A stretch of DNA of 64,000 bases from assembly GCA_963971405.1 (NCBI GenBank), contig OZ020490.1:32451464-32515463 (forward strand). Direction: 5' to 3'. Shown here in pieces: positions 6,695 through 61,100 of the stretch; positions within the stretch are counted from its first letter, which is position 1; each line of letters opens with the position of its first letter. Made by a program: the position numbers and the translations under genes. This DNA is from Psococerastis gibbosa (lineage: Eukaryota > Arthropoda > Insecta > Psocodea > Psocidae). The notes below the pieces were generated by a model. That model saw nothing but the letters and a program-made list of their open reading frames with translations. It was not told where the DNA came from and ran no database searches.

Positions 6695-7262
6695 TAAATA
6701 AATAAGGACTTTTTATTGTTTCTATTACTAAGCCAACCTAGCGGAGTTAGGGCTATAAAACCCTCTCTTAGGCGCCCTTTCCACCGACCGGCTAAGGCTA
6801 TTTACAAAAACGGTGACGTGGTAGCAGACATTCAAGACTTAGTTGGCGTTTCCACCGACCTCGCATTGCAGAATGCCAATGACATTGACGGAAATTAGAA
6901 TTTTTCTTTTTATAGAAATCTATTAAAATGTTTGTCCTTAACATATCCCATGAAGCCATTTTTTAATTTTAGTTTGTTTGTTTGTGATTTTACTGTATGA
7001 TCATTGATCAATTTTAACTATGGCCTAGAGTAAAATAAACATTTCCGTCAATTCTGCAATGCGAGGCCGGTGGAAACCCCGCCTAAGTCTTGAATGTCTG
7101 CTACCACGTCACCGTTTTTGTAAATAGCCCTAGCCGGTCGGTGGAATGGGCGCCTTACACTCAACTAAGAAAGCCCGGGACCGCCTGCTTTACATGCCTT
7201 CCGAAGCATGGCCAGAAAAAGTAGCCAGTGAAAGTCAGAATCCGTACCACTACGCTACATGT
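6695..7262 (-). repeat. SINE family 1 copy, reverse, split by a MITE
   Basis: The SINE tail ('aataaggactttttattg') and body ('ctagcggagttagggctat') lie left of the MITE. The rest of the body ('ccgggaccgcctgctttaca') and the reverse A-box ('ccactacgctacatgtcc') lie right of it. Joining the two flanks at the TTA target gives continuous SINE sequence. Confidence 0.8.
6771..7154. mobile_element. Composite GGCG-type palindromic MITE (element within element)
   Basis: The outer ends GGCGCCCTTTCCACCGACCG and its inverted partner are flanked by TTA on both sides (6768-6770, 7155-7157). The outer arms hold 'ggtgacgtggtagcagacat'. A second element with ends GGCGTTTCCACCGACCTCGC and GGAAACCCCGCC sits in the centre of the outer palindrome. 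A near-copy with the same nesting occurs at 49746-50131. The 3-bp TTA target fits PIF/Harbinger-type insertion (inference). Confidence 0.8.
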
Positions 7263-7442
7263 CCTGTGTGATGGGTTGATGTATATTTTTGGGGCATGTT
7301 GCTGACTACAACATCTCAAAAGGAGCAGTCGTCGTGAAATAGTATCATCTGCCTATGCTGAGGCCTACACCCTTATTATATTATATTATATTCATACCAA
7401 CAGAAATTACAATTTAATACTAGTAAAACAAATACTCCAAGG

Positions 7443-7589
7443 TAAGGCCGTGCCCAGGTTTTTGTTTCAGAGGGGTTACAAATGTTTTTTTTTTATTTTA
7501 TTAATGAAAGTCCATTCTATTCAGTGTGCAACCCTTCTATTTCGGAGGGGGTTCGAACCCCTTGGACCATCCCCCTGGGCAAGGCCTTG
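7443..7589. mobile_element. hAT-like MITE (AAGGCCGTGCC ends)
   Basis: Ends are TAAGGCCGTGCCCAGG and CCTGGGCAAGGCCTTG. The flanking 8-mers are CTCCAAGG (7435-7442) and CTTCAAGG (7590-7597), an 8-bp target duplication with one change. It is related to the elements at 13290 and 27671. Confidence 0.7.
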
Positions 7590-7659
7590 CTTCAAGGCAA
7601 TATGTGGCTTGACGTGTTGGTTAAAAGAGGGAAATACACGATATCGATTGATTGAATTT

Positions 7660-7850
7660 GACTACTTGTACATTTATGGCGACTTCGGTGACAAGGTGGT
7701 AGCTTGCTTGTATTGTGCGAGTCTCTACACACCTTGCAATCGGAGACGTGTCGTAACTCGGCACAAGTACCTATTAGGTTTCTCTTAGTGAGGCGATTGA
7801 AGAGGTTAATCTGATACATTAAATTGTTTGTACGCGATTAACCTTTTTTT
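7660..7850 (+). repeat. SINE family 2 copy
   Basis: Forward copy beginning near 'gcgacttcggtgacaaggtg' and ending near 'ttgtacgcgattaacc'. It is the same family as 2758, 19630, 22450 and 61330. Confidence 0.65.
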
Positions 7851-9230
7851 TAATAATAATGATAATAATATAAAAAATTATGACAATTTTAACTCTTACA
7901 GTAACCATAGTGATTCAGGTGAATAGTTTTGTACTTTGAGAAAGCTTGTACGTGCTATACCTTATATACTTTAATTATATATATATATATATTTAATTTA
8001 AATAAATAAATAAAATAAATACCTAATCATTTATTTATAAGCAAACAGGCCTAAAAGTCCAATAACTAAGGAAGTTATTAAAATATTGGTTCATTTCAGT
8101 CGCACAAGACTAATTTAAACATCATATAATCGGGTATTAGTAATTTTTGGTTTTGTAGTTCTTTACATGGCAGGTAGGTCTATCTAATTTATTTTACATG
8201 AAATTTTAGACCTCAATCATTTTTATGAAAAAGCTACTACGGTAACAAAAATTAAAAATACCCTTTTATAAGAAGCGTGAAATAGTCTTCTACAACTTAA
8301 ATGATCAAATTCTTCAATATTTAGCTTTGTTACTTGAACAAAAAATAAGAAGACTGTGATTTTGGGGTCCCTATTTCCTACGAGACGCACAGTCTAGTGA
8401 TAATAATATATATTTTTTCCACGTATTGTAATGTAAATTATTGAAGGAAATAAAAATGTAATTGAATATCATTCAAATAGAGCAGGCGCTCATATTACCA
8501 AAAAAATTGGGAAAGATATAATAAATACAAACTTTCTCATGGGTAAATTATTTACTGGGATGGTTCAATAGGTAGGGCCTAAAATTCTTTTAAACCTAAT
8601 TTGCAGTACCTAGATGTAATACACATCAGGATTTATTATAGATGAAATACTACACATAAATTAACATTGCTTCAGGCAAGAAGAAAATGAACATTTACAG
8701 CAAAAGGTTTTCTTTCATGCAGGCCTTACGTCGTTACACATTTTTATTTGTTTGGGGCACCGGAACGGGAAAATAATTTATTTCGTCAAAATTACTCAAC
8801 TGCCATTTTTGCACAAATAATAAAAAATATAAAAATAGCCTAATTAAATAAAATTTCAAAAATAATAAAAATAAAAAATTAGAAAGCTCTGCTATATCGT
8901 ACATAAAACTACAAAATACGATAAAGTAGGCTACAACATACCGTATATGTGAACATATAATAATATATGAGAATATCTACGCTGCATTTCTAATGCAGAA
9001 CAAAAAATTTGTAGGAGACCCGGTTTCAAACCCTTGACTCAGCCAAACCGCAGCAGCGTGTTAAACCATACATCAATTAGTTAAAGCCGTTACTTACAAA
9101 GTTGTGAGAAGTGCGTAATCCAAGTCACGAATTTGCGGTGCCGCGGAGACACAACAGCGCTACGTCCTGTTGCTGAATGCTGACTTAGCCAGGGTCGCGC
9201 GCTGGGCCCCCGCGCCTGCGTGCAGGAACG
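7851..9230. other. AT-rich spacer with half of a MITE
   Basis: No gene is recognised. About 8240-8395 resembles one arm of the TTAA MITE at 519-903 ('gaaatagtcttctacaactt', then 'cctacgagacgcacagtct'). There is an (AT)n tract near 7975. Confidence 0.4.
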
Positions 9231-9985
9231 CAGGCCATTCGCTCACTCCAAACCGAGCCTGAATAAATTCAGCAGCTGCGACATCCCTTGGAATGAAGAC
9301 CTCCAGGAGTCAAATTGCCCCCCCGAATAGTAGATTCCTAATATATTTTTGGTCATAGGTTTTTATTGGGGTGTCTGTCAGACCAGATGGATCACCGGCC
9401 ATTATCTCGCTCCAAATAGAGCCTGAATAAATTCAGTACCTGAGACATGGCTTGGAATGAAGATCTCCATGATTCGTCTTGCCTCCCAATAGCATTGTAT
9501 TGATGGTTTGTTTTCCAACGCCTGCTTTCAGCATTTCTGCTTTTAAGCAACCCTGTCAGCCTGGCGATGGGAGTGAGTCTGTTTCTTAACTAGAGGCACC
9601 CTAAGGTTAAACTCCTTATTATTTAATTAATTAATTATTGTTTTTTGTTTTTCCAACGCATCCTTTCAGCATTTCTGCTTTTAAGCAACCTTGTCAGCCT
9701 GGCAGGGGAAGTGAGTTCCCTAACTTGAGACCCCCTAAGGGCAGACTCCTTTATCTCGGGGAGAAGGGGAGTTGACTGACAGGGTGGACCTCCTGATTAT
9801 AGTGGATTCCGAACCACTTGGGGAACATGGTAAAGTCAAACGATAAATTCGGAGGTGACCAGGACGTAGACTGTCTGGACATAGTGTCAGCCCGTTATCA
9901 TGTCCCACCATGTTCCCCTGCCAACTCTGAGGTTTACTGTAGTTTGGAACAGGCTCTGTTCTGTTGGATTTCACTTGTTATGGCC
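9231..9985 (+). repeat. Repeat family R with internal duplications
   Basis: A block of about 85 bp ('gagcctgaataaattcag') occurs near 9255 and again near 9420. A block of about 138 bp ('ttccaacgc..tttcagcattt') occurs near 9515 and again near 9653. The right part ('ggtggacctcctgattatag', 'gaaccacttggggaacatgg') is the standard family R sequence. No protein is encoded. Confidence 0.7.
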
Positions 9986-10105
9986 GTTGGCAAAAGAAGA
10001 ACATCCTGGTTGAAAACCCTGAGGCAGTTTGGCAAGAGCACGACTTCCCTTTTGAGAGCAGCAGTTTCCAAGGTCCAAATTGCCATGATGATTGCCAATT
10101 ACATT
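9978..10105 (+). mobile_element. LINE ORF2 C-terminal tail (RTE-like)
   Basis: A short frame reads 'KRRTSWLKTLRQFGKSTTS' then '[14 protein letters not shown]'. This C-terminal signature is shared with the longer LINE piece at 51700-52240 and the tails at 58840-58930 and 61545-61700. Only the last 40 or so residues are present, so it is a dead 5'-truncated copy. Confidence 0.65.
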
Positions 10106-10786
10106 ATATAATTATATTTATATAATTTATATAATTATTTTTATATAATTATATAATTTATATAGTTATATTATTGTGCATACTTAATGCAGCCAATTGA
10201 AGAAGGATCTATGCACGGTCAGGTCATGGAGGGTCTTCTTACAAAATTTCCATAAGTATGGGGAAGAGCTTTTCTCTCTAATCTCCAAGCCCATGCAACA
10301 AGGGCAATTTCACGGCTAGAGTTGTAAATTACAATACATAAACCGATTATACTAAGATACTAAGTACTATGTATACTTTTTGGTTTACTTTAGAAACATT
10401 TCGAAACAACAGAGCAAGTATGACTGCTTATGACATGCATAGTTCGGATGCTACCTGTCTTAAACTAGACAGAAGCTGTATCGGAAGTGATGATATTGAA
10501 TGGTTATTGAAGTTACAGAGCTTTCAATTCGCACGGCTAGAGATTACAAACTTGTCAAAAAGAGAGAAACTTGTGGTTATTTGAACATGATGTATACAAG
10601 TTAGTAGGCTACGCTATGTCTCAGCAACTTTATGTTTAAGTTCGTGTAAGCTATACACAACCCCTAAACTTTGTAGTAGTTGCGAAGGCTATTTTATTAG
10701 TTTCAACTTGTACTGTATGTTAAGCTTGCATCATTTTGATCCAACTTGTGTGTCTGTGGGGTTTGGCATTGTGTAATACCTCATAA
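10106..10786. other. AT-rich spacer
   Basis: It begins with a dense TATAATTATAT tract. The 71-codon ORF at 10369-10584 has no recognisable domain and no supporting splice sites. Nothing can be assigned. Confidence 0.4.
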
Positions 10787-11165
10787 CTAAGAAACCTCCC
10801 CGTGTGGCGGATAGGGGAGCTCTCCGCAGGGACTTGTCACTAATGGGTACCTGGGAAATAAAATAGCAGGGGTGGGCCAAAATCTGAAGGGTAGTGTCAA
10901 TGGCCCCGAAGGCGGAAGAGAATGCCTAGAAACATTCCAACGGCGGAGGAGGCAGAAGAACGCGACCAAACCAGCTTGCTGCCTTGCGAGAAGAGGAGGG
11001 ATCGAGGGGGATCTGGCGACCCCTGGCGTCGATGACTGGCGAAGAAGAGCGCAGGACCGCGCAGGCTGGCGTGAAGCAGCAGAGCCGGCCAAGGCCCTTC
11101 ACGGGCCCTAGCGCCGCCAAGGAGCAAGTAAGAAACTCTTCAGTTGGCCAGAGAAATACCATATA
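10787..11165 (+). mobile_element. LINE ORF2 C-terminal fragment
   Basis: The plus frame contains 'LATPGVDDWRRRAQDRAGWR' followed by 'AKALHGP', the usual C-terminal end of an RTE-like endonuclease-reverse transcriptase ORF. The same motif type is seen in the LINE at 23100-23767 ('DRAEWRGIVRAAKSPHG'). Composition is clearly more GC-rich than the surroundings. Confidence 0.65.
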
Positions 11166-13460: not shown

Positions 13461-13532
13461 AATCCATTTTATATGTTTTTCCTTATTTTTGCAGGTACGT
13501 AAAGTTATGATAACGCGCAGAAAACGACCAAA

Positions 13533-16600: not shown

Positions 16601-19600
16601 GGACTTTGGCCTGCTCTGCCCCTTCGCGCCAGCCTGTGCCTTAAATTGTCTTATTCATTTTTAGGCGAAAAAGGTGTCTTTTCAGTCGCAAGCAGAAAAC
16701 GGGTCGATTACACACAAAACGTTCTCAATAGAACGGGGCTGTGCGCACCGGTGTGAGCCTGGCTGCATTACAATAGGTAAGCAATACAAGTACATACAGT
16801 AAAGCTATGTAAGCAATACAAGTGCCTACAGTATAGCTATGTAAGCAATACAAGTACCTATAGTAGTATACCTATATTAGCATAAATAATTAGATTACTC
16901 GTGACTTCGTGGTATTTCATTTTAATAAACAAAAAATAACAAAAACTTAAGAGTTTGAGAAAAACTTGTTATAACAACCCGAATTAGTAAAACCCAAATA
17001 ATCGTTAAGAAATACATTACATTCAGAATTATCTTTCAAACTTCACTTTTTAGAATGGACCACCTTGCAAGATCAAATATACACAAAAATTAGTGGCATC
17101 CCTTACAAAAAACGCACAACACTAAATAAAAAAATAAAAGAACTGAGTCAAAACCAAAATAACAAATCCAACGGAATACATCACACATCACATCGCGACA
17201 CGAAACATCAGATGTGCGGGACAAACGAGTGTTCCCGGTCTAACCCCCTTCATCGATCGATGCAGACTGGGGTAGGTCAGGGCCTCACGCCTTCAGCGCA
17301 GACACTCACTGCACTACCCATCACAACACATAAATTCTATCCTCGTACCGTCAACTTATCTAACACGATTTTCAACACTAAAGAAATGGAACTTCTCAAC
17401 AAAGGCCTCAAGTATTGCCCCGATATAGGTCTAAACAAAAACACGTTAACCAATTGCAACAAAATTGTACTTATTTAACATTATTTTTTAAAAATATCCG
17501 CCCAGTAGTTTCGTATAACAGTGCCCCAGCCAGCAAAGTAGCTAGTTTTCTCAACAAACACATTCGCGAGCTATCAAACTTCACACCCCGCCACAGCGTC
17601 AAAAATTCATTCGAGTTGGTTTCCCGCCTTAAGCATCTTTCCTTATCCAGCAATGCCAAACTCGTCTCTTTCGATGTCAAAAATCTGTTTACTAATATTC
17701 CCGTACCCGAAGTACGTAAATTAGTTGCCCAGTCACTCTATCACAATAATAACTCGAACAGCCTTATTTCTGAAACCCTCCTTCTGTTAGACACATGCAC
17801 TCATCAAAACTATTTCCGTTTCGAATCCGACTACTACCAACAAAAAATAGGCCTACCTATGGGTTCTTCCCTTTCTCCCCTTCTTGCTGAAATTTTTATG
17901 GATAACTTCGAACACAAACTTCTACTCAATAAAAATCCCCTAGTTAAATGTATATCTTTCTGGACAAGGTATGTGGATGATATCTTCTGCATTTGGACAG
18001 GAAGTAACAGACAACTAGACAATTTCTTAAGTTTTATCAACACAATTCACCCAAAAATCCAATTTACCATGGAAGTAGAAGAAAACAACTCCCTGAACTT
18101 CTTAGACCTCACCATCACCAAAAATAATAGTACCCTAGACTTCAAGATATTTCGTAAAGAAACCCATAGCGATAATATAATCCCTGTTGATTCTTCTCAC
18201 CCATTCCAGCACAAACACGCAGCATTCCATAGTATGATTTTTCGACTTCTTAACATCCCTATGAATGAAACCAACTATAATAATGAATTAAATACAATAA
18301 AACAAATTGCCCAAAATAGCAATTTCAATCTCAATCTAATAGACAGAATCCTACGACATCACAAAATCAAACACAACCTCAAACTAATTTACCCCCCACA
18401 GAGCTTAAACCAGGAAACCAATAAATCATATTTCAGGATACAATACATAGAAAAAATCACAGAAAAAATAAGTAACCTCAATTATTCTACAACAGACAAA
18501 ACACCAGCCCCGTACAACCGCAACAATTTAGCCAATAAACTCATGAACTGCAAAACCAAACCAGAAAAGGAAAAAGGCAATGGCGTTTATCGTCTAAATT
18601 GTAACGATTGTAATGCAATTTACATAGGCCAAACAGGCAGAAGCTTTAAAACTAGGGTCAGAGAACATATAACAGGTATAGGAGACACCAACACCAACAG
18701 CACATTCGCGAAACACCTTAACTCGGAAAATCACACATTCGATCCTCACAATTGGACAGCCCTACACAAAATAAAGAAAAGTTACCCTTTAAATTTTTTT
18801 GAAAATGTTGAAATCAAAAGAGCTTTACACAATAAGGAAAAATTAACAAACGAAATAACATTCACACAATCATCCCCTCTAATAGATCTAGCTAGTAGGT
18901 TAGGAATAGGTAACCAGCCACGCCCCTCCCACCCCCTCCTCCCCCCGCTCCCAGTCCTATATAAACCAAGGTTTCCTCTCCCTAGTCACATTTGCATCTT
19001 CTCCTTGAGTTGAGCAAGTCTCAAATCGCAGATAAGGTGGATAAGTGGGTTTCCCTCTGTAGATGGCAGTTCTTGCCGAAAGCGCTCAGGGTTTTATACT
19101 AACACAAGTGGGTTTCTTAGACAAAGTTAATTTCTTAACGATTATTTGGGTTTTACAAATTCGGGTTGTTATAACAAGTTTTTCTAAAACTCTAAGTTTT
19201 TTTGTTTATACCTACCTATACTAGTACCAAACCTATATGGATGGACGCCCCACGTTAGTAGCATAGCGTTAATAAGGACATCCGATTCTATTCCTAGTTT
19301 CCACGTAACCCTAATGGCAGTGGCGGATCCACGGGGGGGGGGGGTCAGGGGGTCATGACCCCCCTAAATTATTAAATTCATAAGATACATAGTAAAAAAA
19401 AAACTCAATTTTTCAACAAAAAAAAATCACCTTTTAAACTTACCAAAACTTGTGAACCCCCCCCCCCCCTAAATTTCCCTCTGGTTCCGCCTTTTGCCTA
19501 ATGGGAAAAAGGAAAGACGCGGCTACCGAGCAAGGTGCTTACCGCAGCATCACAAATTGAGCAGTTGTCATGAGAGAGAGAGGATCAGTCCTCCGGTTGC

Positions 19601-20038: not shown

Positions 20039-20051
20039 AGTATTAATAAAA
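20034..20051 (+). terminator. Poly(A) signals of Ly6 exon 4a
   Basis: AATAAA at 20034-20039 overlaps the stop codon, and a second AATAAA lies at 20046-20051. The 3' UTR would be very short if the first is used. Confidence 0.5.
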
Positions 20052-22018: not shown

Positions 22019-22309
22019 TTAAGGCGGCTATTCCACCTGCGATTTTATTTCATAGGCCTATTTGATTTTGTCATTGACGTTTGTTTTGTTTAAAGGAGAC
22101 TATTAAGTAGATACTTAACTTAACTATTATAAATTAAGTTGTAATATAGTAGCAGGCTCTTTTTAATCACATTTGACGTCTGCTACCATATTATAACTTA
22201 AAATAGATAAGTTATGTATCTACATAATAGTCTCCTTAAAACAAAACAAACGTCAGTGACAAAATCAAATATATGAAGTAAAATCGCCTGTAAAATACCC
22301 GCCTAAGTA
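22019..22309. mobile_element. GGCG-type palindromic MITE, TAA target
   Basis: Left TAAGGCGGCTATTCCAC and right CCCGCCTAA ends with a TAA target on both sides. The arms share 'aaaggagactatta', 'agatacttaactta' and 'gtctgctaccatattataac'. The same family occurs at 24154, 28416 and 44588. Confidence 0.8.
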
Positions 22310-28415: not shown

Positions 28416-28846
28416 TTAGGCGGGTATTCCACTTGTCAGTTTTTCTTCATTTGTGCATTAAAAATTGATTTTTGTTTTAAGGAGACTATTATGTACATAC
28501 TTAACTTATCTATTATAAATTAAGTTATAATATTGGAGAGACTTGTTATTGATGTACTTATGCCTCTACCATATTATAACTTAATTTATAATAGATAAGG
28601 TAAGTATCTACATAATAGGATCCTCTATATTAGGGAATATAGTGCCTTACTTAAAACAAAACAAACGTCCATGAAAAAATAAAAAATTAAGTAAAATCGA
28701 CCAGTGGAATAGCCGCAAAGTTCACCGACCTCATATTTGAAAGTGATCATGATATGACGTGGACATTAAAGACTGTCTAAAAATGTCTGCTACCACGTCA
28801 TATCATGATCACTATCAAATACGAGGTCGGTGGACAATGCGCCTTA
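28416..28846. mobile_element. Two fused GGCG-type MITEs sharing one TTA target pair
   Basis: The left part (28419 to about 28715) belongs to the 'ttaacttatctattataaat' family. The right part (about 28717-28843) is a different palindrome with arms 'gtgatcatgatatgacgtgg' and centre 'ctgtctaaaaatgtctgct'. Only the outer ends keep TTA copies (28416-28418, 28844-28846). It lies between the Tctex1 start and the divergent ORF at 28941. Confidence 0.7.
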
Positions 28847-29117: not shown

Positions 29118-29129
29118 TTGCGCGACATG

Positions 29130-36356: not shown

Positions 36357-36359
36357 ACA

Positions 36360-37660: not shown

Positions 37661-38093
37661 ACCATAACATTAATGGCTTGGATTCACGGAGAACAGCTTA
37701 GATCTGATAATGACAACCCAAACAACATAACCCCCCCCCCCCCCTCCAGTCTCCAGTCCAGAAGGTTACGCAGCCCCCTATAATGCTTTTCTCAGCGCTC
37801 CAAGTAATTTTAATTCTCAACTGCCAATTTTGAATTTGCCACAATTAAAGGTACCTACTTATGGTATACGTGGGTGTAGCTTAGGAGCCTTGGACTATAC
37901 TGCTCTAGCTTCTGAAAATTAGCAAGATTAAAAGATGAAAACTGGTGAAGTAGGCATGGTGACGTACAGCAGTCGATACTCTCAAAAATAATAAAAATCC
38001 GCCTATGCTTAGCATACTACATGAAAATAAACTTTATATCCAGTTTAATTTGTAACATCGTTGGTGTTCCAAAATGAAAAAAATCATATAAAA
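37661..38093. other. Unassigned spacer
   Basis: It contains a 14-C run near 37731. No gene is recognised. Confidence 0.35.
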
Positions 38094-38232
38094 GGCGCTT
38101 ATTCGATCAACGTCAATAGTGATAGTAAATGTGGTATTGACGTGGTAGCAGACATTAAGACAGTCTAAAAATGTCTGCTAACACGTCAATACTACATTTA
38201 ATATCACTATTGACGTTGGTGGAGTATGCATC
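38094..38232. mobile_element. GGCG-type palindromic MITE (third arm type)
   Basis: Arms 'aacgtcaatagtgatagtaa' and their inverse surround the centre 'tggtagcagacattaagaca', whose inverse is 'tgtctgctaacacgtc'. The left end GGCGCTTATTC is kept; the right end is altered (ATGCATC). Confidence 0.72.
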
Positions 38233-38578
38233 TAAAGGGGACCAACATTTAAAAAAAATTCCGGGGTATTCTGAGGAACTATTTAACAATTTCCGAGGAA
38301 TACGGCAGAAGACATTTGGCAGCCCTGCTAACGCGGCCCGACTCCCGGACTCCGACTCACGACTGACCAACCTGGCCGGTGCCGCAACTACCCCTACCAT
38401 ATTCCACACATTACACTTACTTAAGAAAAAAAAGAGAAAAAAATTGTTTTTCATCATAAAAACCCTAAAACTAAAAACACAAAATTCAGTTCATCATAAA
38501 AAAACACTAACTAAAACACAAAATGATTGTAAGTGAAAGGGAACAATATAAATTATTCTTAATTCGACCCTGCAGTCC

Positions 38579-38824
38579 TTACAAATTCAGGCGTGAAGGC
38601 GGCTTAATTATCCTCGACGACCGCGTTAAGGGTTGAGGGCTACCTGAGGGTATGTTATGACTCACAGGAGACGTGTCCCGCTCACTATCCCGGCCTGCTA
38701 CCGGAGTACCCAGATCTTTTGAAGTGTCACACATCTGTTTACGCTCCGGTGAAGCCATAACTCCCTTTCCATTCGCATTGCTTTGTTCATAATTGTTTTG
38801 ATCTGCATTTTTACGAGCTTGCAT
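38579..38824 (-). pseudogene. Gypsy pol C-terminal tail
   Basis: A hydrophilic tail ending 'TRSSRIIKPPSRLNL', typical of the last residues of Ty3/gypsy integrase polyproteins. Confidence 0.75.
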
Positions 38825-39476
38825 ATTTGGAATCGCAATTTAATTGTCTTTCCATTAACAATGGCTGTGCCATGTTTGCTTGATCCAACCCTGGATAACC
38901 GTTACCATTATTAGGATGCTCAGAATATCTATTTTCAGCGTTCTCAATTCTTGACTGAGCCTCCCTTACTTCCCTCAACCAATTCACATGAACAAGTCTT
39001 TCTCGCCCAAATATTTTTACAATGTAGGTAGTGGCACTGTTTTTCCTTACAATATGCCCTATTACCCACTTTTGTGACAGGTTCATTCCATCAGTTTTTA
39101 CCCATACCTTTTGAGATGAATTGAATTCTTTTCCTTTGAAACAATACGACTTCGTTTGGGTAGTTTTAGGGTTTATCAATGAGATTTTAGTACGTGGTAA
39201 TTGTCGAAATATTATTTCATATGGAGACTTTCCAGAAGCCCTAGGTGTCATTCTTACATGAAATAGAACATTGTCTAATTTCTTTTGCAACTGCATTTCC
39301 TTATATTTACTTTCCATAAACTCTCTTTTCAGCATTTCTTTAACCGTTTGGACCCCCCTCTCTGCAAGACCATTTGATGATGCTTTATAAGGTGGACTAT
39401 TTTTCCACTCAATTCCCAGCTTTTCAAAAAAAGTTCTTAGCTCCTCAGAGGCAAATGGCTGACCATTGTCAGATAC
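38811..39476 (-). pseudogene. Gypsy integrase C-terminal half
   Basis: 'FFEKLGIEWKNSPPYKASSN' and 'GLAERGVQTVKEML' carry the catalytic Glu; 'RERLVHVNWLREV' is the C-terminal DNA-binding part. The sequence continues in the neighbouring frame to 38579. Confidence 0.87.
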
Positions 39477-39641
39477 CAGGGACGGTTTCAGAAAAAGTTT
39501 TCGGGGGGGGGGGGGCGGTGACCTGAAAAAAATCGCGTTTCCCTTACTTGAGTAACAATTTCTCTTCATTTCCTTCAAAAGTCCATTCTATCTAGTATAA
39601 AGCTATTTTTCGGTCGCCCCCCCCCCTAGGATCCGTCCCTG
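39477..39641. mobile_element. hAT-like MITE in the gypsy integrase, perfect 8-bp TSD
   Basis: Ends CAGGGACGG and CCGTCCCTG. TCAGATAC is duplicated exactly at 39469-39476 and 39642-39649. It has internal G- and C-runs. It interrupts the integrase core just after the second catalytic Asp region. Confidence 0.9.
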
Positions 39642-40483
39642 TCAGATACTACTAGTTCAGGCAAAGAGTATGTGGCGAAAGCTTTCCTCAACTTATCAAT
39701 TACGTCTTTAGCTGTTGTACTACGCATTGGCCAAACTTCTATCCACCCCGAAAATGCGTCTACGACCAGTAAATATTTTATTCCCTGTAACTCAGAAAAA
39801 TCCATATGTATACGTTCCCAGAATCTTGATGCCGAAGGCCAAACAGTTACCACTTTAGTGTTAGGTGTAGACCTTGATGATTGACAAATATAGCAAGTTT
39901 GAATTTTCATTTCAATATCAGAATTATAATTAGGCCACCATACATGACTACGGCTCAGTGATTTCATTCGGACCACCCCAGGGTGTCCTTCATGCAACAA
40001 GTTTAACACCTCTTCCCTCAACTTGGAAGGTACAACAACTTGATGGTTTCTGACCACACAACCTTTCTCTACTGAGAGTTCCAACCTTTTCACATAATAC
40101 TGTTGAACCTCTACCCGATTATTAGGCCATCCGTATTTCAAATACATTATCACCTTCTTTAAAATCGCATCTTCAGCCGTAGCTTGAGCTACCTGTTCAA
40201 TTTTTAAAGGAAATTCAGAGTCAACTAAGTCAAAACTGTTTACATCAATTAGCGTATCCTCGATTTCACAACTTATTTTCCTTTCTTTTATGGGATTCCT
40301 TGAAAGTCCATCTGCGTTTCGCAGATCTGTACCCTTAACCCATTTTATTTCATATTGGTATGCTGCTAGAAATAATGCCCATCGCTGCAGCTTTGCAGCT
40401 GTCATTGCCGGAACATTCCTATTAGGACTCAAAATAAATTGAAGTTGCACGTGCGTCACTTTTAATAGTAAAGGGTCTACCAT
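39626..40483 (-). pseudogene. Gypsy RNase H end and integrase N-terminal half
   Basis: 'RWALFLAAYQYEIKWVKG' (RNase H end), then the H-x-H...C-x2-C integrase zinc finger ('HEGHPGVVRMK' ... 'CYICQSS') and the start of the catalytic core ('IHMDFSELQGIKYLLVVDAF'). The frame is cut at the hAT-like insertion. Confidence 0.87.
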
Positions 40484-40595
40484 ACAGAAATTTGTGAAAT
40501 TTTCTTACACCCATTACCAGAGCCAAAGCTTCTCTTTCCAGCTGAGAAAAATGTTGCTGGCTTTTATTCAGTGTGCAACTATAAAAATATATAGG

Positions 40596-40913
40596 TCATT
40601 CTTCTCCATCTATAACATGAGATAATACACAACCACAACCATGTGGAGATGCATCCACTGATAATACTATAGGCAATGAAGGGTTATAGTAAAGCAATCC
40701 TTTTGACTCAGCAAGTAAACTTTTCACCTGTTCAAACGCTTTTAGAGCTTCATCTGACCAATTCAACTTTTTATTACGCGAACCCCCCTCTTTTGTATTC
40801 GTCTTGCCTTTTTCCGACCCTGACCTATTCTCGGAACTTTGCAACCTATACAAAGGGGACATTACCGTCGCTGCGTTTGGGAGGAACTTGTGGTAATAGT
40901 TAACCAATCCCAA
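40596..40913 (-). pseudogene. Gypsy RNase H N-terminal region
   Basis: It contains 'GLVNYYHKFLPNAATVMSPL', then a linker and 'LSVDASPHGCGCVLSH', the RNase H start. It continues across a short break to 40483. Confidence 0.82.
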
Positions 40914-40957
40914 CCAACTTCTAAGGTCATCACTATTTTCTGGTGGTTTAACCCCAG

Positions 40958-41303
40958 ATATTCAACTTTTTCTTTGAACCATTGACACTTATAGACGCGA
41001 CTGGGCGCTAGAAGGGGGTGTAGGAGCACTGTGGCTTACCGGTGAGCGTCACCTACACGTCGCAAGGTAAGCCACAGTGCTCCTACACCCCCTTCTAGCG
41101 CCCAGTCGCGTCTAACTTATTTATATTCAATTTAACAATAAAGTCATTTAATTTCTCCAAGGTTTTGTGTAACTTATCTTCACAATCAGATTTAGACGTA
41201 CCACTTATTAAAATATCATCTAGGTAAGCCATTACCCCATTTATCCCCTTAAGAATTGAATCAACAACTCCCTGAAACACAGAAGGTGCGCATGCCACCC
41301 CAT
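40958..41303. repeat. 346-bp duplicated block, unit 2
   Basis: Second copy of the RT-plus-MITE block. The 102 bp between the blocks (41304-41405) encode the normal RT continuation ('GQMLTPQGVFPSDEKIAAV'). Confidence 0.9.
40992..41114. mobile_element. 123-bp hairpin MITE, 5-bp ACTTA TSD (copy 2)
   Basis: The same hairpin as 41440-41562, differing by one base in the loop (taccggtgagcg versus taccggtaagcg). ACTTA occurs at 40987-40991 and 41115-41119. Confidence 0.85.
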
Positions 41304-41405
41304 GAATGGATTGCATTGCCCTTAAGTCTGTGAAATCATCATTCGTACGGCTGCAATTTTCTCATCAGATGGGAATACCCCCTGTGGTGTTAGCATTTGT
41401 CCCAA

Positions 41406-41751
41406 ATATTCAACTTTTTCTTTGAACCATTGACACTTATAGACGCGACTGGGCGCTAGAAGGGGGTGTAGGAGCACTGTGGCTTACCGGTAAGCGTCAC
41501 CTACACGTCGCAAGGTAAGCCACAGTGCTCCTACACCCCCTTCTAGCGCCCAGTCGCGTCTAACTTATTTATATTCAATTTAACAATAAAGTCATTTAAT
41601 TTCTCCAAGGTTTTGTGTAACTTATCTTCACAATCGGATTTAGACGTACCACTTATTAAAATATCATCTAGGTAAGCCATTACCCCATCTATCCCCTTAA
41701 GAATAGAATCAACAACTCCCTGAAACACAGAAGGTGCGCATGCCACCCCAT
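41406..41751. repeat. 346-bp duplicated block, unit 1
   Basis: It is nearly identical to 40958-41303 at an offset of exactly 448 bp and includes the hairpin MITE and part of RT. Only a few base differences are seen. Confidence 0.9.
41440..41562. mobile_element. 123-bp hairpin MITE, 5-bp ACTTA TSD (copy 1 in element order)
   Basis: Near-perfect palindrome with ends TAGACGCGACTGGGCGCTAG, separated by a short loop. ACTTA lies directly on both sides. No internal ORF. Confidence 0.85.
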
Positions 41752-42270
41752 ACGGTAGTCTTTTCACTTTATACAACCCCTTAATGGTATTAATAGTAAG
41801 CAAATCAGAAGCTGTTTCAGAAACACGCAATTGTTGATAAGCCTCTCGCATATCTAATACACACCACATTTTTCCTGTTCCTACCCTGGAAATAATATCT
41901 TCTATAGTAGGCAATGTGTAACAAGTTCAATATTCTGACTCAATTTTTTATAGTCAAAACAGAGCCTCAATTTACCATTAGGTTTTCTCACAGGTACTAC
42001 CGGACTTGCCCATTTTGCATATTTGACTGGTTCAAGAACTTTCCTGTTAACCAAAGCTTCTAACTCTTCCTTTAATTCTGCTTCAAGCGCATATGGGACC
42101 GAATAGGCCTTTTGGAACACTGGTGTCACCCCAGCTTTTAATACAATATCAATTTCAACCCCGATTATACATGAATCATCCTTTGACATAAACACCTTAG
42201 GATATTTACATTTTAACTCAGACAAAAAATTATCATCATTAAACAGGCTGAAAACAAACTGATCTCTCAA
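41543..42270 (-). pseudogene. Gypsy reverse transcriptase, N-terminal and catalytic part
   Basis: Two overlapping frames (41902-42270, 41543-41914). They contain 'WASPVVPVRKPNGKLRLCFD', 'LDMREAYQQL' and the catalytic 'YLDDILI'. The upper part of the motif before 'MPTIEDI' is frameshifted near 41910. The frame is cut by the hairpin insertion at 41440-41562. Confidence 0.82.
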
Positions 42271-42632
42271 TTAGGAAATAAAATATCAAGCCAGGCACGT
42301 CCCAGCAAAGGAAACCTTAGTTTGTCCCTGACTACAAGTAAAGGGAGATAATTATTCTCCACGGTCACTTCACAAATACCCTGAACCTGCAAGGGTGTAC
42401 CATTGACCGATTTGAAGGTGGACTGCACATCTCTCAGCTTGGGACCTCCCAGGTAGTTCCACTCCGACAACCCCACTAGAGATATAGGCGCGCCCGTGTC
42501 AACCTCGAATTCCAGAACCTTCCCATTGACCTTGGTTGATACTATGCCTCGTCCTTCTGAGAAATTCGCCACTTCGAGATTGTTGAAAATTCCTTCGTCT
42601 TGTAAACATTCTTCTTCATAGACTTCTTGCAC
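42267..42632 (-). pseudogene. Gypsy protease region
   Basis: It contains 'VLEFEVDTGAPISLVG', the retropepsin active-site DTGA, and 'LLGRAWL' near the C-terminus. It continues into RT in a neighbouring frame. Confidence 0.8.
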
Positions 42633-42700
42633 AGGTTCTTGGCGCTGTCTACTCTTGTTCTTATAGTCAGTTCTCTCGCATTCTTGCTGTCGTGACAGGG

Positions 42701-44587
42701 GGAAACAATTGGCAGCTATATTCTGGCTTTAAAGGAAGCCGCAAAAGACTGTGACTTCGGAACAGCGTTGAAGGAAAATTTACGCGACCAACTTGTATAT
42801 GGGTTAAGTTAAGTCTTAAACGCCAAATTGCGTAGCCTACTCATCTTGTGCAGCCTACGGTCTACACTATAGCAGCCATATATTGATAACGGTCTCCAGG
42901 CACGGGATGGTAAATCCAGAAATCATAAGCTGACAAAGCATTCCTTATGCTTTGTAGGAAAATAGGAAAGCAACAAGATCCTTGCTTAAAATATACATTA
43001 TCTTGCCAATGAGGCGTTTGCCTTCCCCCATATAAGCATTTTTTTAAGGTTTAAATAAATTCCGACTAGTCTCTGTTAGCCTATATTCAGATGAGCTCTT
43101 GTGGAATTTAGGAATAAAACTTATCAAAGCTTGTTGTGAAATAGGGAAAACTGTCAATGGTTCACATTGTTGTAATTATATTTCAACTGAAACTTTATAC
43201 TTTTCGACGCCATGGTAAATGATATGATGCGTCTTGCAAGGCTGTTTCAATCCAGTTAGAATAGCAAAATTAAGAAAACTTGCCCGTGAAATTGTATTGT
43301 AAAGGACAGTGATGTTAGCAATATTTAAAGACGTTAATTAATTTGTTAGATTTGCCAAATTCAGGCATAAATTCAAATTTAAAACAGAAACTAAAAAACT
43401 CACCGAACAAAACAGAAACGACGCCAATAAAACAAGGGCTCTATATAAAACAACAATGCATCTGCATGCCGGAAACAAGTTTGCAATTTGGCGACAAAAC
43501 TTGGCGCTTCTTTTCAAACAAAGTACGCTTTCATCTATAAAATTATGGACGATATGAATTAATTTTGTAATGTAGGCCTCATAAAATAATATAAATGAGA
43601 CTAAGTATTTTGGAAAACGTTTTAAGTAATAATCTAAGTCTTCAACAGTAACAGTAATGCTGATTTTTACGGTTGATCGAGCTAAATTGAACTTTCAATA
43701 GCTGCGGTCGTTAAAATTCAATTTCTTATTAATTATAAATCGTAGAGCTATAAATGAAATGTCAAGAAGTAGAAGAAAAATTCTCCTCTATATTATGATG
43801 CAGTACCCACAATACTTAATTGTTAGTGAGTGACATCAATATTAGTCACAGTTTTGAAACTCAATCGACCTGACATTCTCTTCAGTGCCGCTATAGGCTA
43901 TTAATTTTTACAAACAGCAAACTAGACAATCGGAGTTAATATGACGGCCATCTCTATTAGGGGCTTCGTCCCCATTAGTTCAGCCTTTGTTCTCTCAGCT
44001 CCTCGTGTACGTCACGGGTCCTCATCGCATGCCTTATATCTTGGTTACTACGTTTGTCTGTGTTACACCGCAGCATCATCTTAACATTCGCATTTCTGCT
44101 ATGTGAATCATATTTTCCTCTCCTCACGTAACGCGTAACACTCTGACCCATTCAACACATTGATGGGAGTCCGAAGGCCTTCAAATGATATAGTGGTAGC
44201 TTGTTAATACTTACCTAAAGAAGAGACTGAAGAGGTTATTAGGATACATTCATTGAAATGTATGTATCCAAGGCTCCACTGTCTTTTTTTTAAAATACAA
44301 TTAACGAACATGGTGATCTAGACCCCTTTTGCAGCCTACCTGTTTAAAATTTGTTAACGGGGTTTTATGAATTGACGATTGCTTATTAACGCTAACCTAA
44401 TTAACCTAACCTGTTAAATATTTCTGTGTTGTAAATTGCCGTTATTGGATCCATTTATTTCTGTTGTTGGCATATATTAAATATTCTATTCTATTCTAAT
44501 AAATGGCCGTGTATGCGAAAAATCATTTTAAAAAATAAAGTCCATGTAGTGTTGTTCTTTGCTTACTATCCACCTAACCTACACTGA
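42701..44587. other. Unassigned region
   Basis: AT-rich. The 65-codon ORF at 43343-43540 has no recognisable domain. A partial SINE 2 copy lies at about 44185-44290. Confidence 0.4.
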
Positions 44588-44862
44588 GGCGGCAATTCCA
44601 CCGGCGAATTTACTTCATTAGTGATTTGAGAATTTTAGTTTGTTTTATTTTAAGGAGACTTAACTTATCTATTATAAATTAAGTTATAATATGGTAGCAG
44701 AAATATTTGAAATGAAAAACGGCTTTATCATCATTAATAAGTCTACCATATTTTAACTTAATTTGTAATAGATAAGTTAAGTATCTACATAATAGTCTCC
44801 TTAGAACAAAAACAAAAATCTCGAATCACAAATGAAGTAAATTCGCCGGTGGAATTGCCGCC
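44588..44862. mobile_element. GGCG-type palindromic MITE
   Basis: Ends GGCGGCAATTCCACCGGCG and its inverse, flanked by TGA and TTA. Core 'taacttatctattataaatt' then 'atggtagcagaaat'. Long arms include 'tttgagaattttagtttg'. Confidence 0.8.
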
Positions 44863-49197: not shown

Positions 49198-52100
49198 CTG
49201 AAAGAAAAAAAAATTGTAAATAAGTAAATTAAAAATGTGTCACTTAAACTCGTACTATTAACATGTCAACGGCCATACCATGTTAAATCCTCCAGAATAG
49301 AGCATGCTCCAAACTGCGGCAAACATGGCAGTGTGCAACGCGTTGCCAGGGGAACAAGGTGGGGCATAATAATGAGCTGAGACTACCAGTCAGTCTTAGT
49401 GCGTGACGAGTCCTGGTCACCTTCGAATTAATCGTGTAACTTTACCATGTTCCCCGAGTTGTTCGGAATCCACTATAATCAGGAGGTAATCACCTGAGGT
49501 TAAGGAGTCTGCCCTTAGGGAGGCTCACTTTAATTAACAGACTCACTCCCCCCGCCAGGCTAACAGGGTTGCTTAAAGTGGCAACGCTGGAAAACAAACA
49601 AATAAACGCACCTACAAAGAGCTTTCAGGACATTCAGAGTATCATACTAACCGAACGTATAAGTATTGAAGTTCTCCTGACAGTTAATTTACCATATTAA
49701 GGTTGCGCCCCGAAAGAAATTTGCTGACTTGAACAAGCATCGACTATGGTGCCCATTCCATTGACCGGCTAGGGCTATTTCCAAAAACGGTGACGTGATA
49801 GCAGACATTCAAGACTTAGGTGGCGTTTCCACCGACCTCGCATTGCAGAATTGACGGAAATGTTTATTTTCCTCTATGCCATAGTTAAAATTGATCAATG
49901 ATCATACAGTGAAATCACAAACAAACTAAAATTAAAAAAATGGCGTCATGGGATATGTTATGTACAAACATTTTAATAGATTTCTATAAAAAGAAAAATT
50001 CTAATTTCCGTCAATGTCATTTGCACTCTGCAATGCGAGATCGGTGGAAACGCAACCTAAGTCTTGAATGTCTGCTACCACGTCACTGTTTTGGGAAATA
50101 GCCCTAGCCGGTCAATGGAATGGGCGCCTAAGAGTAAAGAAAAACTGCTATATTTGGGTTGTGCTTCCTCTACCACTATCGCCCATGGTATGCCACCTTT
50201 GACCTTCCTTTCCATAGTCTAAGTTCTAGTTCTAAGAGCCACCTGGTTCTTACAAAATGAAAATCGCACATCTGTTGTGTTATGATCATAATATGATGTG
50301 TTTGTGGTCTTTCGGTACTGCATTGGCTATAACGTACTGTTTAAATTGTTGGCTGAAAATTTTCCACTTTGAAGTTATCGGATTGAAGCACGCTACATAA
50401 CCTATATTGGTTACCGACTGGGCACTGCTTGTTGCAGCAGAAGCAGATCCTGATCCTCCTGTCATCGTCCCAAATAATTGTAAGTACCTTATTTAGTCCT
50501 AGTCGCAATCCCCATGCGTTTTTATACTTAGTCGAGATTGACAGGAAGAGCTATCAAAGAAATTGCATAACATAGAAGAAATACTCCTCAACATTTTGAT
50601 ACATGATGTGTAGCCGTCACAAACACCGGGCGCCCTCACCAACAGTTTTTTCTTCAAGTTCTACAATTGTGGTTAACCTATGTTGAGGCCGGGCACATAT
50701 CTTGTATCAAAATGCAGAGGAGCATTTCTGGCAAGGGATATGATATGATATACGATATAGAGATTTGATTTTTACACTTGCAAGGGTTTTCCCTCTGCAA
50801 TTGTCTCACCTTAATGCTACTTTGGAGAGATCACGTGACGATTGGGAGAGTGCTAGAGGCTATTGAAAAAGAGAGACAGCTGTCACCTCATATAAAAAGT
50901 AGAAGAGCGAAATGGGTACGGCATTTGTTAAGAAACGAAAATAGAAGAGGGCGGCCGAAGAAGGAATTCATGGATGAAGTGAAGGAGGACGCAGGAGCTC
51001 AAACGTACGTAAGAGCTGAAGAGGGAGGCGCAGAACCAAGAGAACTGGAGGATATGCAGGGAGTTGCTGGCAACCAATCATTGAGATGGTGACCGCACAA
51101 GGAGAATGTTACTCTCAATCTACTTACCTTTATCTCCAGACACCTTCCGCTGCAGACTCCTCAACCCGACTACGCACGAGTTGTGCTTCATGCGCGCCAT
51201 TGAGATGTTGCCGGGATTGTTGTAGGGCGCATCCAGCGCCGCCCGCGACTTGCCACACGCCGCCTGAACTAACACCAGCGCCGCCTCCATGTCGCCCTGC
51301 TCCTCCAGAATGCGCCCTCGCTCCATCAGGTCGTCCACTTCCCGACAGAGGTCCTCACAGTCCTGTCCAACTGGAAGAATAAAATCTAAAATGGAGAGGA
51401 AGAAACGCAAGAAAAATGGGACAAGCTAGAGGCTCCAACCCCCTTTTATTCGGCTTTGTTTAACAGTTAGCTGACTCGTACTTGGCATGTCATGCTTTCG
51501 CCTGTTTCATTGCGTTAATGGTAGGCTTGTCTCAGTTTGTCCATTATCGCTTGTAGCCGGTGTAGGTTGACATCGAGAACGTATATATATATATATAACA
51601 GCTTGCCAATGGCCAAAATTCAAACGGAAACAATACAAATAATGTCCGTAATTCATGGGATCGTTGGCATTGGACAAAGCTATGGGCCACTATAAGTAGG
51701 CCTGGGTCCATAAGAAGGCCTCGAAAAGAATTACAAAAACAGTTAGCCACGAAAGAAAGGAGGTTAAATATTTTAAATTTTATTTATACGTCAGAATCTG
51801 CAGTTGGAGACATTGCGAATGCAGAAACGAATTATGTTCCCAATTGTACTATATGGTATGGAGGGATGGACTTTGACACAGGCTATGGAAAACTCAATCA
51901 GTGCATTTGAAATGTGGGTATACAGACGAATGATGCGTATATCCTGGAGAGATCGTGTCCCTAATGCTGAGGTCCTGAGGCGAAAGGATACAGAAGCCAA
52001 GTTGCTGCTGACGGTTAAGAAACGGAAACTAACATACGTCGGTCATGTGCTGAGGAACGAAAAATATCGCCTTCTGTATGTAATAATCCAAGGGAAGATG

Positions 52101-58100: not shown

Positions 58101-61100
58101 AACAAAAACTCATAAGTCATAACCACCTACAATTAGTGACATAACGGCCTCAATATATTTGGACACCTAGTTAAGAGAGGTGAAAAAGTGTGCGATTCGT
58201 TATGTGGGAGAGCCGGAGCCGGGCCTGCGGTTCCCACAGCGATTTCCATCTGCGAAATGACGTTAATCTTGTTATATAGCATTTGAGTGACGGTTCTCCC
58301 ATTGTTAGAGACTCCCCTATGGAAATCTATTAGCCTTTTCATTGTGTATTATCATACAAATGTGTCATGTTATATGTTGGCAGCCCTGTCTGATTCCCAT
58401 TAATGCAGGGTTATAAAAAACAACCGTAGGGAGAAACCTAATAAGTGTAAAAACTCAAATTTCATAAGAAATATCCATAGTGTGGCCACCAATAGGGGTA
58501 TTCACTGTGTTTGGTTTAACTTAACGGAAAGTAGGATACTGATGGAAAATAGAGAAACTGAATTCCAGTTTTTTTTACGTAGAAAAATAACGCCATGGAA
58601 ACGTGTATCTCTACGTTTCCCACTTTACCCGACCGGTAGGTTGGGGAACTGCACTTGGGGAATCGAAAACGGCCATATTTGTTGTTGTTTTGAATTTTGC
58701 TTTTTACTTTATTCAATTTAAATTAATTTAAAATATGAGCTCTGCAACATATATTAATAAAAAAAGGACAAAAACAAACATGTGGCAAGAGGTGGACGAC
58801 AGCAGATGGTCATAAGTTAATAGCCAAAGGCAAAGAAACTTTGGAGGTAAGTTAGAGCAGCAGTCTCCAAAGTCCAAATTGCCATGATGTTCGCCAATCT
58901 TCGATAGAAGAGGCATTTAAAGAAGAAGGTTATCCCTCAAAGAGTTTAACACTTGCTACGAGCCTAGGTGTGGAAAGAACCTTTAGATGTGTAATTGTGT
59001 ATAGTCAATATAACACGTCCCCTGACTTTATGCTTAAGTGAATGTAGACAAGCGAAGGTCAGGTATAGAATGCATGTGGCAAACCTTGGCTCAGTCATCT
59101 TCCCACTTATTTCTTTTTATTCATCTTACGTACTGAAAATTATCATTGGAATCCTAAAGAGACAATCAATTTTTTTTATATATATAAAGTTATTAATCAA
59201 GAGACAATCAGTAAGGCGGGGTTTCCACATACGTCAATCGTCAATGAGAAATATGAAATTGAAGGTTTAGCAGACATTAAAGACATACTAAAAATTCTGC
59301 TACCACGTCAAAACCATATTTCTCATTGACGATTGACGTATGTGGAAACCCCGCCTAAGGAAATAGCTAATTTAATATTACGACGGGTACTTCATTTGTA
59401 TTTGCTTCTGTATCTTAGTTTCTGTTGTGTGTGGTCATTGATTAATTGTTTTGCGTACTGTTGTTAATAGGACATTCCTTCAGAGGACAAGATGAGGTTA
59501 GTTAGTAATGAAGAAATGGGACGACAGTTTGTGTTGGAACAAACATTGGTAAAGAAGATAGCGAGAAGAAGACTGCAGTGGTTCAGACGCGAAAAGCGAA
59601 CAGATAACAGCAAGTGCGGGATAAAAGGCAAGGGTGGAGAAATAGAGGGAACACGGAGAAGAGAAGATCAAGGAAGACAAACAGAAACCAGACAGAAAGC
59701 AGATAACAGCAGGTGCGGGATAAAAGGCAAGGATGGAGAAATAGAGGGAACACGGAGAAGGGAAGATCAAGGAAGAGAGACAGACACCAGACAGAAAGCA
59801 GATAACAGCAGGTGCGGGATAAAAGGCAAGGATGGAGAAATAGAGGGAACACGGGCAAGAGAAGATCAAGGAAGAGAAACAGAAACCAGACAGAAAGCAC
59901 ATAGCAGCAGGTGGGGGATAAAAGGCAAGAAATGAAGAGAAGATCAAGGAAGAGAGACAGAAACCAGACAAAAAGCAGATAAAAGACAAGGATGGAGAAA
60001 TAGAGGGAACACGGAGAAGAGAAGATCACGGAAGAGAAATAGGAACCAGACAGAAAGCAGATAACAGCAGGTGCGGGCTAAAAGGCAAGAAATGAAGAAG
60101 ATCAAGGAAGAGAGATAGAAACCAGACAGAAAGCAGATAAAAGACAAGGATGGAGAAATAGAGGGAACACGGACAAGAGAACATCAAGGAGGAGAAACAG
60201 AAACCAGACAGAAAGCAGATAACAGCAGGTGCGGGATAAAAGGCAAGGATGGAGAAATAGAGGGAATACGGACAAGAGAAGATCAAGGAAGAGGGACAGA
60301 CACCAGATTAAGGACCATCTTAAAACAGTTGGACTGGTACTTGAGGAATAATGTTGCCAACGGCCATATAGAATCTTCTAGAACAGAACCTGTCCAAAAC
60401 TACAGCGAACTTGGTAGTGTGTACATAGCGCTGGCAGGGGAACATGGTGGAACATGATAACGTGCTGAGACTATAACAGTCAGTCTCAGTGCGTGTTGAG
60501 TCCTGGTCTCCTCGGAAATAATCGTGTGACTTTACTATGTTCCCAAGTGGTTCGGAATCCACTATAATCTGGAGGTCCAAACTGTCAACTGCCCTTCTCC
60601 CTAAAGAGAAGGAGTCTTTGGGAATGATGAGAATAATGATAATTGTCGTTAAAAAGTAAATTTCGAACTGCTGCACCGCTTCCCCAATTTAACGTTTGGG
60701 AGCTTTAGCTTCACCATAGGTGCTGTTCATGCTGATTAGAGCAGAATCCTAATAAAGTAGAAGATCCAAAGCGTGTTTTCTTCGCTTACAGCAGGAACGT
60801 ACCTGGGTAAAGGGCAGCGGTTCACTCGTAGCTTTACACGCATCGCAGACACTCTGCTCCACCAACGTCATCGCAAACTTCTGATGAGGAATGCAATGCC
60901 TGGCGTTGCACATGTCCTCGGCTTCTTCGTGGGCAATATGGAAGTGGATGCGCAGGAGAATGTTCTCGAAGCACTCGGCAGCATCGTCCATGCAGCCCAG
61001 CTGGAAGCGCTGCTGGTCAAAGAAGGTCTCCGCGAGGGCCCGGCGCAAGGCATCTGGAGGCAGTGCACTCTCCTGGGAGAATTGCAGCTGCGAGAAGAGC

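What the first reader, a model, noticed from the sequence alone, without database searches (positions are those of the whole stretch)
6771..59355. Palindromic MITEs with constant ends and constant centre but different arms
Elements at 6771, 28717, 38094, 49746 and 59215 share GGCG...CGCC-type ends, TTA/TAA targets where visible, and the centre 'GGTAGCAGACATT' (inverse 'AATGTCTGCTACC'). Their arms are unrelated palindromic sequences: 'accgacctcgcattg', 'gtgatcatgatatg', 'gtcaatagtgatag' and 'caatcgtcaatgag'. The group at 22019, 24154, 28416 and 44588 has the same ends and 'atggtagcaga' or a near variant. This suggests either one transposase mobilising hairpins whose arms are swapped or captured, or strong selection on ends and centre only. 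I know of no named family described this way.
Basis: partly seen in the sequence, partly recalled or inferred. Interest (0 to 1): 0.72.

Follow-up and report, generated by a model that had tools for sequence, protein, structure and literature searches.

The report
Mirror-image jumping genes evolving in concert
The window holds several small palindromic jumping genes that look unrelated in their arms but belong to one large family, whose two halves appear to be copied onto each other so that new variants stay mirror images.

Summary
The palindromes are real. They are Tourist-like MITEs of the PIF/Harbinger group: mostly TWA duplications, and ends shared with longer elements in the same genome that carry a MADF/Myb gene and, in one degenerate copy, also a DDE_4 transposase. 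The genome holds 1918 perfect paired centres (reversed control 0). The arms only look unrelated: sampled copies link the extremes through intermediates that match beyond shuffling. Elements 6771 and 49746 are composites: a deletion derivative with about the first 18 codons of a MADF gene sits in a sibling MITE's central TTA. Eight related copies keep the expected unequal junctions (a/b); others are a/a or b/b. Among 19 composites with comparable arms, 161 arm changes are shared by both arms and 38 are one-sided. One copy (L131) has identical, much changed arms yet unequal junctions. This points to short-tract copying between arms rather than repeated rebirth of palindromes. That suggests arm capture, or parallel gain or loss. 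The centre's function is unknown; an internal transposition enhancer is my guess.

The parts
6771..7154 (.). Composite MITE, 384 bp, flanks TTA/TTA; outer arms CCGACCGGCTAGGGC..., symmetric a/a junctions
6820..6841 (+). Left core plus junction a (GGTAGCAGACATTCAAGACTTA)
6842..7083 (.). Inner element (deletion derivative of a PIF/Harbinger element) lying in the central TTA of the outer MITE
6906..6959 (-). About the first 18 codons of the MADF/Myb ORF ([18 protein letters not shown]) inside the inner element
   Evidence: longer relatives
7093..7105 (-). Right core
49748..50128 (.). Second composite MITE, 381 bp, a/a junctions; flanks TAT/TAA (one mismatch)
49819..50057 (.). Inner element of the second composite; MADF ORF start at 49940 on the + strand ([18 protein letters not shown])
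28717..28843 (.). Palindromic MITE, arm type H (CCGACCTCGTATTTGATAGTGATC); left end missing against the 28419-28716 element
38094..38232 (.). Palindromic MITE, arm type B (GTCAATAGTGATAG), carried inside a larger repeat
59215..59355 (.). Palindromic MITE, arm type T (CATACGTCAATCGTCAATG), flanks TAA/TAA; the inner parts of its two arms differ (AAATTGAAGG versus GTTTTGACG)
22023..22303 (.). Second-group MITE, similar ends and a diverged copy of the centre, longer arms; flanks TAA/TAA
24157..24300 (+). Truncated second-group MITE (end approximate)
28419..28716 (.). Second-group MITE
44588..44862 (.). Second-group MITE

Best explanation
These are non-autonomous, palindromic Tourist-like MITEs of one PIF/Harbinger family. 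Each half reads: TWA target, GGCG(N5)TCCAC end, an arm of about 36 bp, TTGACG, and the core TGGTAGCAGACATT; two halves meet head to head. The family descends from a core-bearing palindrome; arms drifted through intermediates until the extremes look unrelated. Arms stay matched because one arm is repeatedly copied onto the other over short tracts (fold-back template switching, or gene conversion between inverted arms). The composites at 6771 and 49746 arose when a deletion derivative of a long element inserted into the central TTA of a sibling MITE, giving unequal junctions a and b; later arm-to-arm copying levelled some lineages to a/a and others to b/b, and an a/a lineage multiplied. Shown by sequence: duplications, ends shared with long elements, the MADF fragment, the three junction classes, matched changes in both arms. 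Inferred: the copying process, the order of events, mobilisation by PIF/Harbinger proteins, the size of the a/a lineage (from 15,462 junction-a strings), and any function of the core.
For: Arms: the extremes T and s9 are no more alike than shuffles (72 of 300), but 15 of 16 links of a 17-arm chain beat all 300 shuffles and one beats 299. With the constant edges trimmed, 14 of 16 links beat all 1000 shuffles, H-F is reached by 4 of 1000 and E-H fails (222 of 1000); the 17 trimmed arms still form one component at 3 of 300 or fewer, and arms added afterwards bridge the gap (D with each J arm: 0 of 5000; 42 pairs tested). Duplications: 45 of 67 items had both ends found; 21 of 45 have identical flanking 3-mers (19 TWA, 2 other); next-outward 3-mers match in 0 of 45. 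A 142-bp MITE in L104 has TTG on both sides, and 6 of 6 relatives compared show the empty site. Long elements: L092 carries DDE_4 (1e-27) and MADF (6e-8); a GGCG/GGCC end lies directly upstream of ORF2 in 9 of 13 printed loci, and in L109; the composites hold about 18 codons of that ORF. Junctions: a/a 11 rows (10 places), a/b 8, b/b 5 (the a/b ones re-read). A symmetric uninserted centre is nearly absent (one place, 2 mismatches); the unsplit a|b centre occurs 430 times. Matched change: 23 composites tried, 22 measured, 19 comparable: 161 changes shared by both arms, 6 left only, 32 right only, 10 different in both; L131 has identical arms, 11 shared changes and a/b junctions.
Against: The exact pre-insertion ancestor with composite outer arms was not found: one search gave 4 places at 3 mismatches, all with other arms (L132-L135). 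Sampling is biased: 40 copies by exact centre from the first 11 Mb of C1, 16 of 25 places by junction b, L001-L008 by junction a on one side. So centre conservation cannot be measured from them and junction classes are not frequencies. The chain was ordered by hand; it is not a tree. Shared changes are inherited among copies, so 161 is not a count of events. In 24 of 45 copies the flanking 3-mers differ: decay, mis-called ends (at least the four with GCC on the right) or no duplication. No intact autonomous copy with transposase, MADF gene and both ends was recovered; L092 is degenerate.
Confidence: 0.8

Rival explanations
1. Arm capture: a core-bearing MITE centre recombined with the ends of different long PIF/Harbinger lineages, so one centre now carries arms taken from each.
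For: MITE arm T_L137 is 97% identical to the long end L112; S0 and s1 arms are 92% and 91% identical to the long S end in L119, itself the inner deletion derivative of a composite. T arm with core: 1246 places; T arm with the long-element continuation: 2294 (up to 2 mismatches). Core joined to the long-element leader: 0 places at up to 1 mismatch and 8 at 2; 219 at up to 3, of which 100 are listed, none with AGCAG. T-type MITEs keep the long-T bases AAGG up to the join, and 59215 has one long-T-like and one A-like inner arm.
Against: MITE arms also form a continuous chain between T and S, as plain descent predicts. Repeated loss of 8-9 bp from long ends, or extinct core-bearing autonomous lineages, would give the same four combinations. 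The direction of any exchange is open.
Confidence: 0.28
2. Independent births: each arm type is a separate MITE made by joining the two ends of a different autonomous element that carried the core as a subterminal motif.
For: Arms equal the terminal bases of long elements for T and S types. L099 has the core upstream of its MADF ORF.
Against: In L099 the core lies in an outer module, with a second end module between it and ORF2. The ends directly upstream of ORF2 in 9 of 13 loci plus L109 lack it, as do the ends in L114, L136 and L142. Arms form a chain rather than separate clusters.
Confidence: 0.15
3. Selection on ends and centre alone: arms are free spacer, and halves match only because each new subfamily starts from an inverted duplication of one half.
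For: By eye, ends and core vary less than arms between subfamilies (not measured; copies were sampled by centre). Symmetric a/a and b/b composites could arise this way.
Against: Copies with unequal a/b junctions but matched, changed arms: L131 (identical arms, 11 shared changes) and L118 (91%, 3 shared). A half duplication would have made the junctions equal too.
Confidence: 0.15

Closest known systems
PIF/Harbinger transposons and Tourist-like MITEs (mPing/Ping/Pong)
   Same: TWA duplications (PMC4482050, passages); a transposase plus a second element-encoded protein (PMC2836001, start of abstract in search listings); very short non-autonomous derivatives in high copy number.
   Different: Palindromic over almost the whole length; a shared core not seen in the long ends examined; nested composites with three junction classes.
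ISL2EU transposons
   Same: Same PHIS superfamily; ISL2EU-like transposases give the top DDE_4 hits here (assignment by eye)
   Different: Target A|AT|T, THAP and YqaJ proteins (PMC4482050 passages); the MITEs here have TWA flanks and MADF partners.
Inverted-repeat arm homogenisation by template switching
   Same: One arm serves as template for the other and differences as short as a few bases vanish (PMC8604942, abstract and passages)
   Different: Shown there for short repeats in yeast; here inferred inside a mobile family, with unequal junctions as a marker.
Internal sequences that raise or lower MITE transposition (mPing, Ost35)
   Same: Internal regions can promote or inhibit transposition (PMC9921582 passages; the Ost35 work seen only as cited there)
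   Different: That study found no specific promoting sequence shared by mPing and mPong; this family shares one short core whose effect is untested.

Membership tests
PIF/Harbinger (Tourist-like MITE) | 3-bp TWA target site duplication | tested here: met
   45 of 67 items with both ends found: 19 identical TWA, 2 other identical (GTA, TAT), 24 differ; control 0 of 45. The L104 insertion has TTG.
PIF/Harbinger (Tourist-like MITE) | Short terminal inverted repeats shared with an element encoding a Harbinger-type DDE transposase | tested here: met
   L092 with L142: DDE_4 gene between a GGCGGCTATTCCATCGAC end and a GGCCCCCATTCCACATACG end. One degenerate copy; the two ends match each other only in part.
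PIF/Harbinger (Tourist-like MITE) | Second ORF with a Myb/SANT or MADF domain in the partner | tested here: met
   MADF in the L092 ORF (6e-8) and in two L099 ORFs (1.6e-4 and 5e-10)
PIF/Harbinger (Tourist-like MITE) | Mobilised by that transposase | not testable with these tools
   Needs an excision assay
ISL2EU | 2-bp AT duplication in A|AT|T | tested here: not met
   Flanks are mostly TWA
Core as part of the autonomous end | Core TGGTAGCAGACATT next to ORF2 or transposase in long elements | tested here: inconclusive
   Not in the ends directly upstream of ORF2 in 9 of 13 printed loci plus L109, nor in L114, L136, L142; 0 core-plus-leader matches at up to 1 mismatch. L099 has the core in an outer module upstream of ORF2.

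The most novel reading that the evidence does not exclude
A short core acts as a MITE-only module that keeps pace with the host's transposases: the palindrome takes over the end of whichever autonomous lineage is active, one arm at a time, and arm-to-arm copying then restores the mirror image. MITEs would thereby track changing transposases without being born anew.
Probability: 0.25. Interest if true: 0.65.

Novelty: new variant of a known kind. Interest (0 to 1): 0.42.

Why it matters
How MITEs arise and keep working while transposases change is an open question. This genome holds unsplit, unequal and levelled forms side by side, so arm-to-arm copying and arm capture inside a transposon family can be tested by counting. 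It also warns that a match of ends and centre between MITEs need not mean swapped modules: a denser sample of copies can reveal the intermediates.

Tried and rejected
Nested insertion was first doubted from the window alone, because the inner flanks read TTA...TAA (inverted, not direct); copies with a/b junctions resolved it. ISL2EU-like transposases, the strongest DDE_4 hits, were considered as drivers and set aside on target site. An end-motif scan of 8 of their 30 loci found only a carried T-like MITE, an inverted-repeat scan of all 30 showed no such ends among the top pairs printed, and four 5-kb stretches showed none. Twelve Harbinger-query loci and stretches showed MITEs nearby but no matching pair of ends; L092 was recognised only. 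A fixed-window arm comparison was confounded by small indels (14 of 40 copies put their two arms in different clusters) and was replaced by aligned arms. L004, L101 and L123 were left out of the shared-change count (arm identity 0.6 or less) and L128 was not measured, its core not located by that script. Literature: searches listed no paper recognisable from title or abstract start as describing this arm-copying pattern in MITEs; one review (PMC12595863) had 0 occurrences of template switch, nested, gene conversion or palindrom. That covers open-licence papers and these terms only. The host was not identified.

Full report
Observation. The window lies in a 409-Mb genome of 68 contigs. There GGTAGCAGACATTCAAGACTTA has 15,462 exact matches (7685 forward, 7777 reverse), and the paired short-loop centre has 1918 places with 0 in the reversed control.

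Anatomy. Forty of the paired centres listed were fetched (L043-L082) and printed. The typical half reads GGCG, five variable bases, TCCAC, an arm of about 36 bp, TTGACG, TGGTAGCAGACATT; several of the 40 are truncated or degenerate on one side. Six (L047, L048, L053, L057, L062, L070) share flanks with window element 38094, which therefore travels inside a larger repeat. Elements at 6771 and 49748 differ: the core sits about 50 bp inside each end and an inner element lies between.

Mobility group. Of 67 items checked, 45 had both ends recognised; 21 of these have identical flanking 3-mers (19 TWA, GTA, TAT), 24 differ, of which four have a visibly mis-called right end; the next 3-mers outward match in 0 of 45. 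In L104 a 142-bp MITE splits a sequence that is intact in 6 of 6 relatives compared, with TTG on both sides. The strongest DDE_4 hits look ISL2EU-like (my reading by eye; THAP and YqaJ not tested), a group whose published target is A|AT|T (PMC4482050 passages). A generic Harbinger query gave 50 matches, some of them already. One fetched stretch, L092, matches the middle of the composites (81.6% over 158 bp). It carries a DDE_4 gene (1e-27) and a MADF gene (6e-8); its neighbour L142 has a GGCGGCTATTCCATCGAC end on the transposase side. Of 16 stretches around relatives of the MADF gene, 13 were printed from a called ORF2 start; 9 of 13 (L103, L104, L105, L106, L108, L110, L111, L112, L115) show the GGCG/GGCC end directly upstream, as does L109, whose ORF start was not called. 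L100, L101, L102 and L107 do not. The composites encode MASWDML(C/R)[10 protein letters not shown], about the first 18 codons of that gene, and then leave it. So the inner element is a deletion derivative of a PIF/Harbinger element.

Arms. Twenty-eight end modules, each found verbatim in fetched DNA, were compared. T and s9 arms, the extremes, are 50% identical, no better than shuffles (72 of 300). Yet a chain of 17 arms has 15 of 16 links beating all 300 shuffles and one (G-K) beating 299. Trimming the constant edges leaves 14 of 16 links at 0 of 1000, H-F at 4 of 1000 and E-H failing at 222 of 1000; over 136 pairs the 17 still form one component at 3 of 300 or fewer. Arms I and J, added afterwards, bridge the weak place (D with both J arms 0 of 5000; 42 pairs tested).

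Composites. If a MITE with centre GGTAGCAGACATTCAAGACTTATTAATGATATCTGCTACC receives an insert at its TTA, one junction should read CAAGACTTA-GG (a) and the other, from its own side, ATCATTAATAA-GG (b). Junction b occurs 25 times at up to 2 mismatches of one pattern. Of 16 such loci fetched, 8 are a/b, 5 b/b, one is unsplit (L124) and two (L121, L122) lacked a recognisable far side (the eight a/b re-read). Among other copies, one search lists 11 a/a rows (10 places, the window's two included); those in L001-L008 were picked by junction a on one side, those in the window, L101 and L137 were not. L097, fetched for its MADF gene, keeps a b junction with its other half lost. The unsplit a|b centre is present 430 times at up to 2 mismatches; a symmetric uninserted centre is nearly absent (one place at 2 mismatches). 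So insertion came first and levelling later, in both directions. The exact ancestor with composite outer arms was not found (4 places, other arms).

Concerted change. Taking s1 as reference, 23 composites were tried; one core was not located, three had arm identity of 0.6 or less, 19 were counted. Changes shared by both arms: 161; left only 6; right only 32; both changed but differently 10. These are inherited among copies, so 161 is not a number of events. The informative case is L131: arms identical and 11 steps from s1, junctions still a and b. A half duplication would have levelled both, so short-tract copying between arms is the better reading. Such homogenisation is known for inverted repeats (PMC8604942, abstract and passages).

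Is there swapping? T-type MITE arms are up to 97% identical to the long end L112, and S-type arms 91-92% to the long S end in L119. The core insert is in MITEs of both types and was not seen directly beside ORF2 or transposase in the ends examined; L099 has it in an outer module. T arm with core: 1246 places at up to 2 mismatches; with the long-element continuation: 2294. Core plus long-element leader: 0 at up to 1 mismatch, 8 at 2, 219 at up to 3; none of the 100 listed has AGCAG. All four combinations of arm type and core exist, which recombination explains; repeated loss or extinct core-bearing lineages would also do so.

Function of the core. Unknown. The long elements whose ends were examined spread without it. 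By analogy with internal promoting regions in mPing and Ost35 (PMC9921582 passages), an enhancer of MITE transposition is my best guess, untested; that study itself found no specific promoting sequence shared by mPing and mPong. Conservation of the centre was not measured without bias, because copies were chosen by it.

Verdict. A family of a known kind with an unusually legible history of nesting and mirror copying. On checking, the MADF fragment was cut from 23 to about 18 codons and several counts were qualified; confidence in the best explanation was lowered slightly (0.82 to 0.80) and in arm capture (0.30 to 0.28) for the sampling bias.

Noticed in passing
38094-38232 and about 38060-38300: This MITE travels inside a larger repeat: 6 of 40 sampled centres share its flanks.
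   Followed up: partly
window 17382-19013: ORF with reverse transcriptase and GIY-YIG domains (Pfam 3.7e-13 and 1e-4), as in Penelope-like elements (name recalled).
   Followed up: partly
window 38811-42728: Broken retroelement with integrase zinc-binding and rve matches, the latter below Pfam's cut-off; a perfect 49-nt inverted repeat occurs twice, at 40992 and 41440.
   Followed up: no
G000, DDE_4 hits at 127.2 bits: Dozens of DDE_4 transposase copies share the same score and mostly a 384-aa open frame, suggesting a recent burst.
   Followed up: no
L137 (C1:12788700-12790250): A cluster of nested and adjacent MITEs of several arm types within 1.5 kb, next to a Harbinger transposase.
   Followed up: partly
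L136 and L114: A further Harbinger lineage with end GGGGGATATTCCACTACATC found on the transposase side (L136) and on the MADF side of another copy (L114).
   Followed up: partly
L105, L107, L109, L110: By eye, four copies join the MADF fragment to an inverted transposase-side end and run on into shared sequence like that inside L142.
   Followed up: no
window 59471-60077: Open frames with an internal tandem protein repeat.
   Followed up: no
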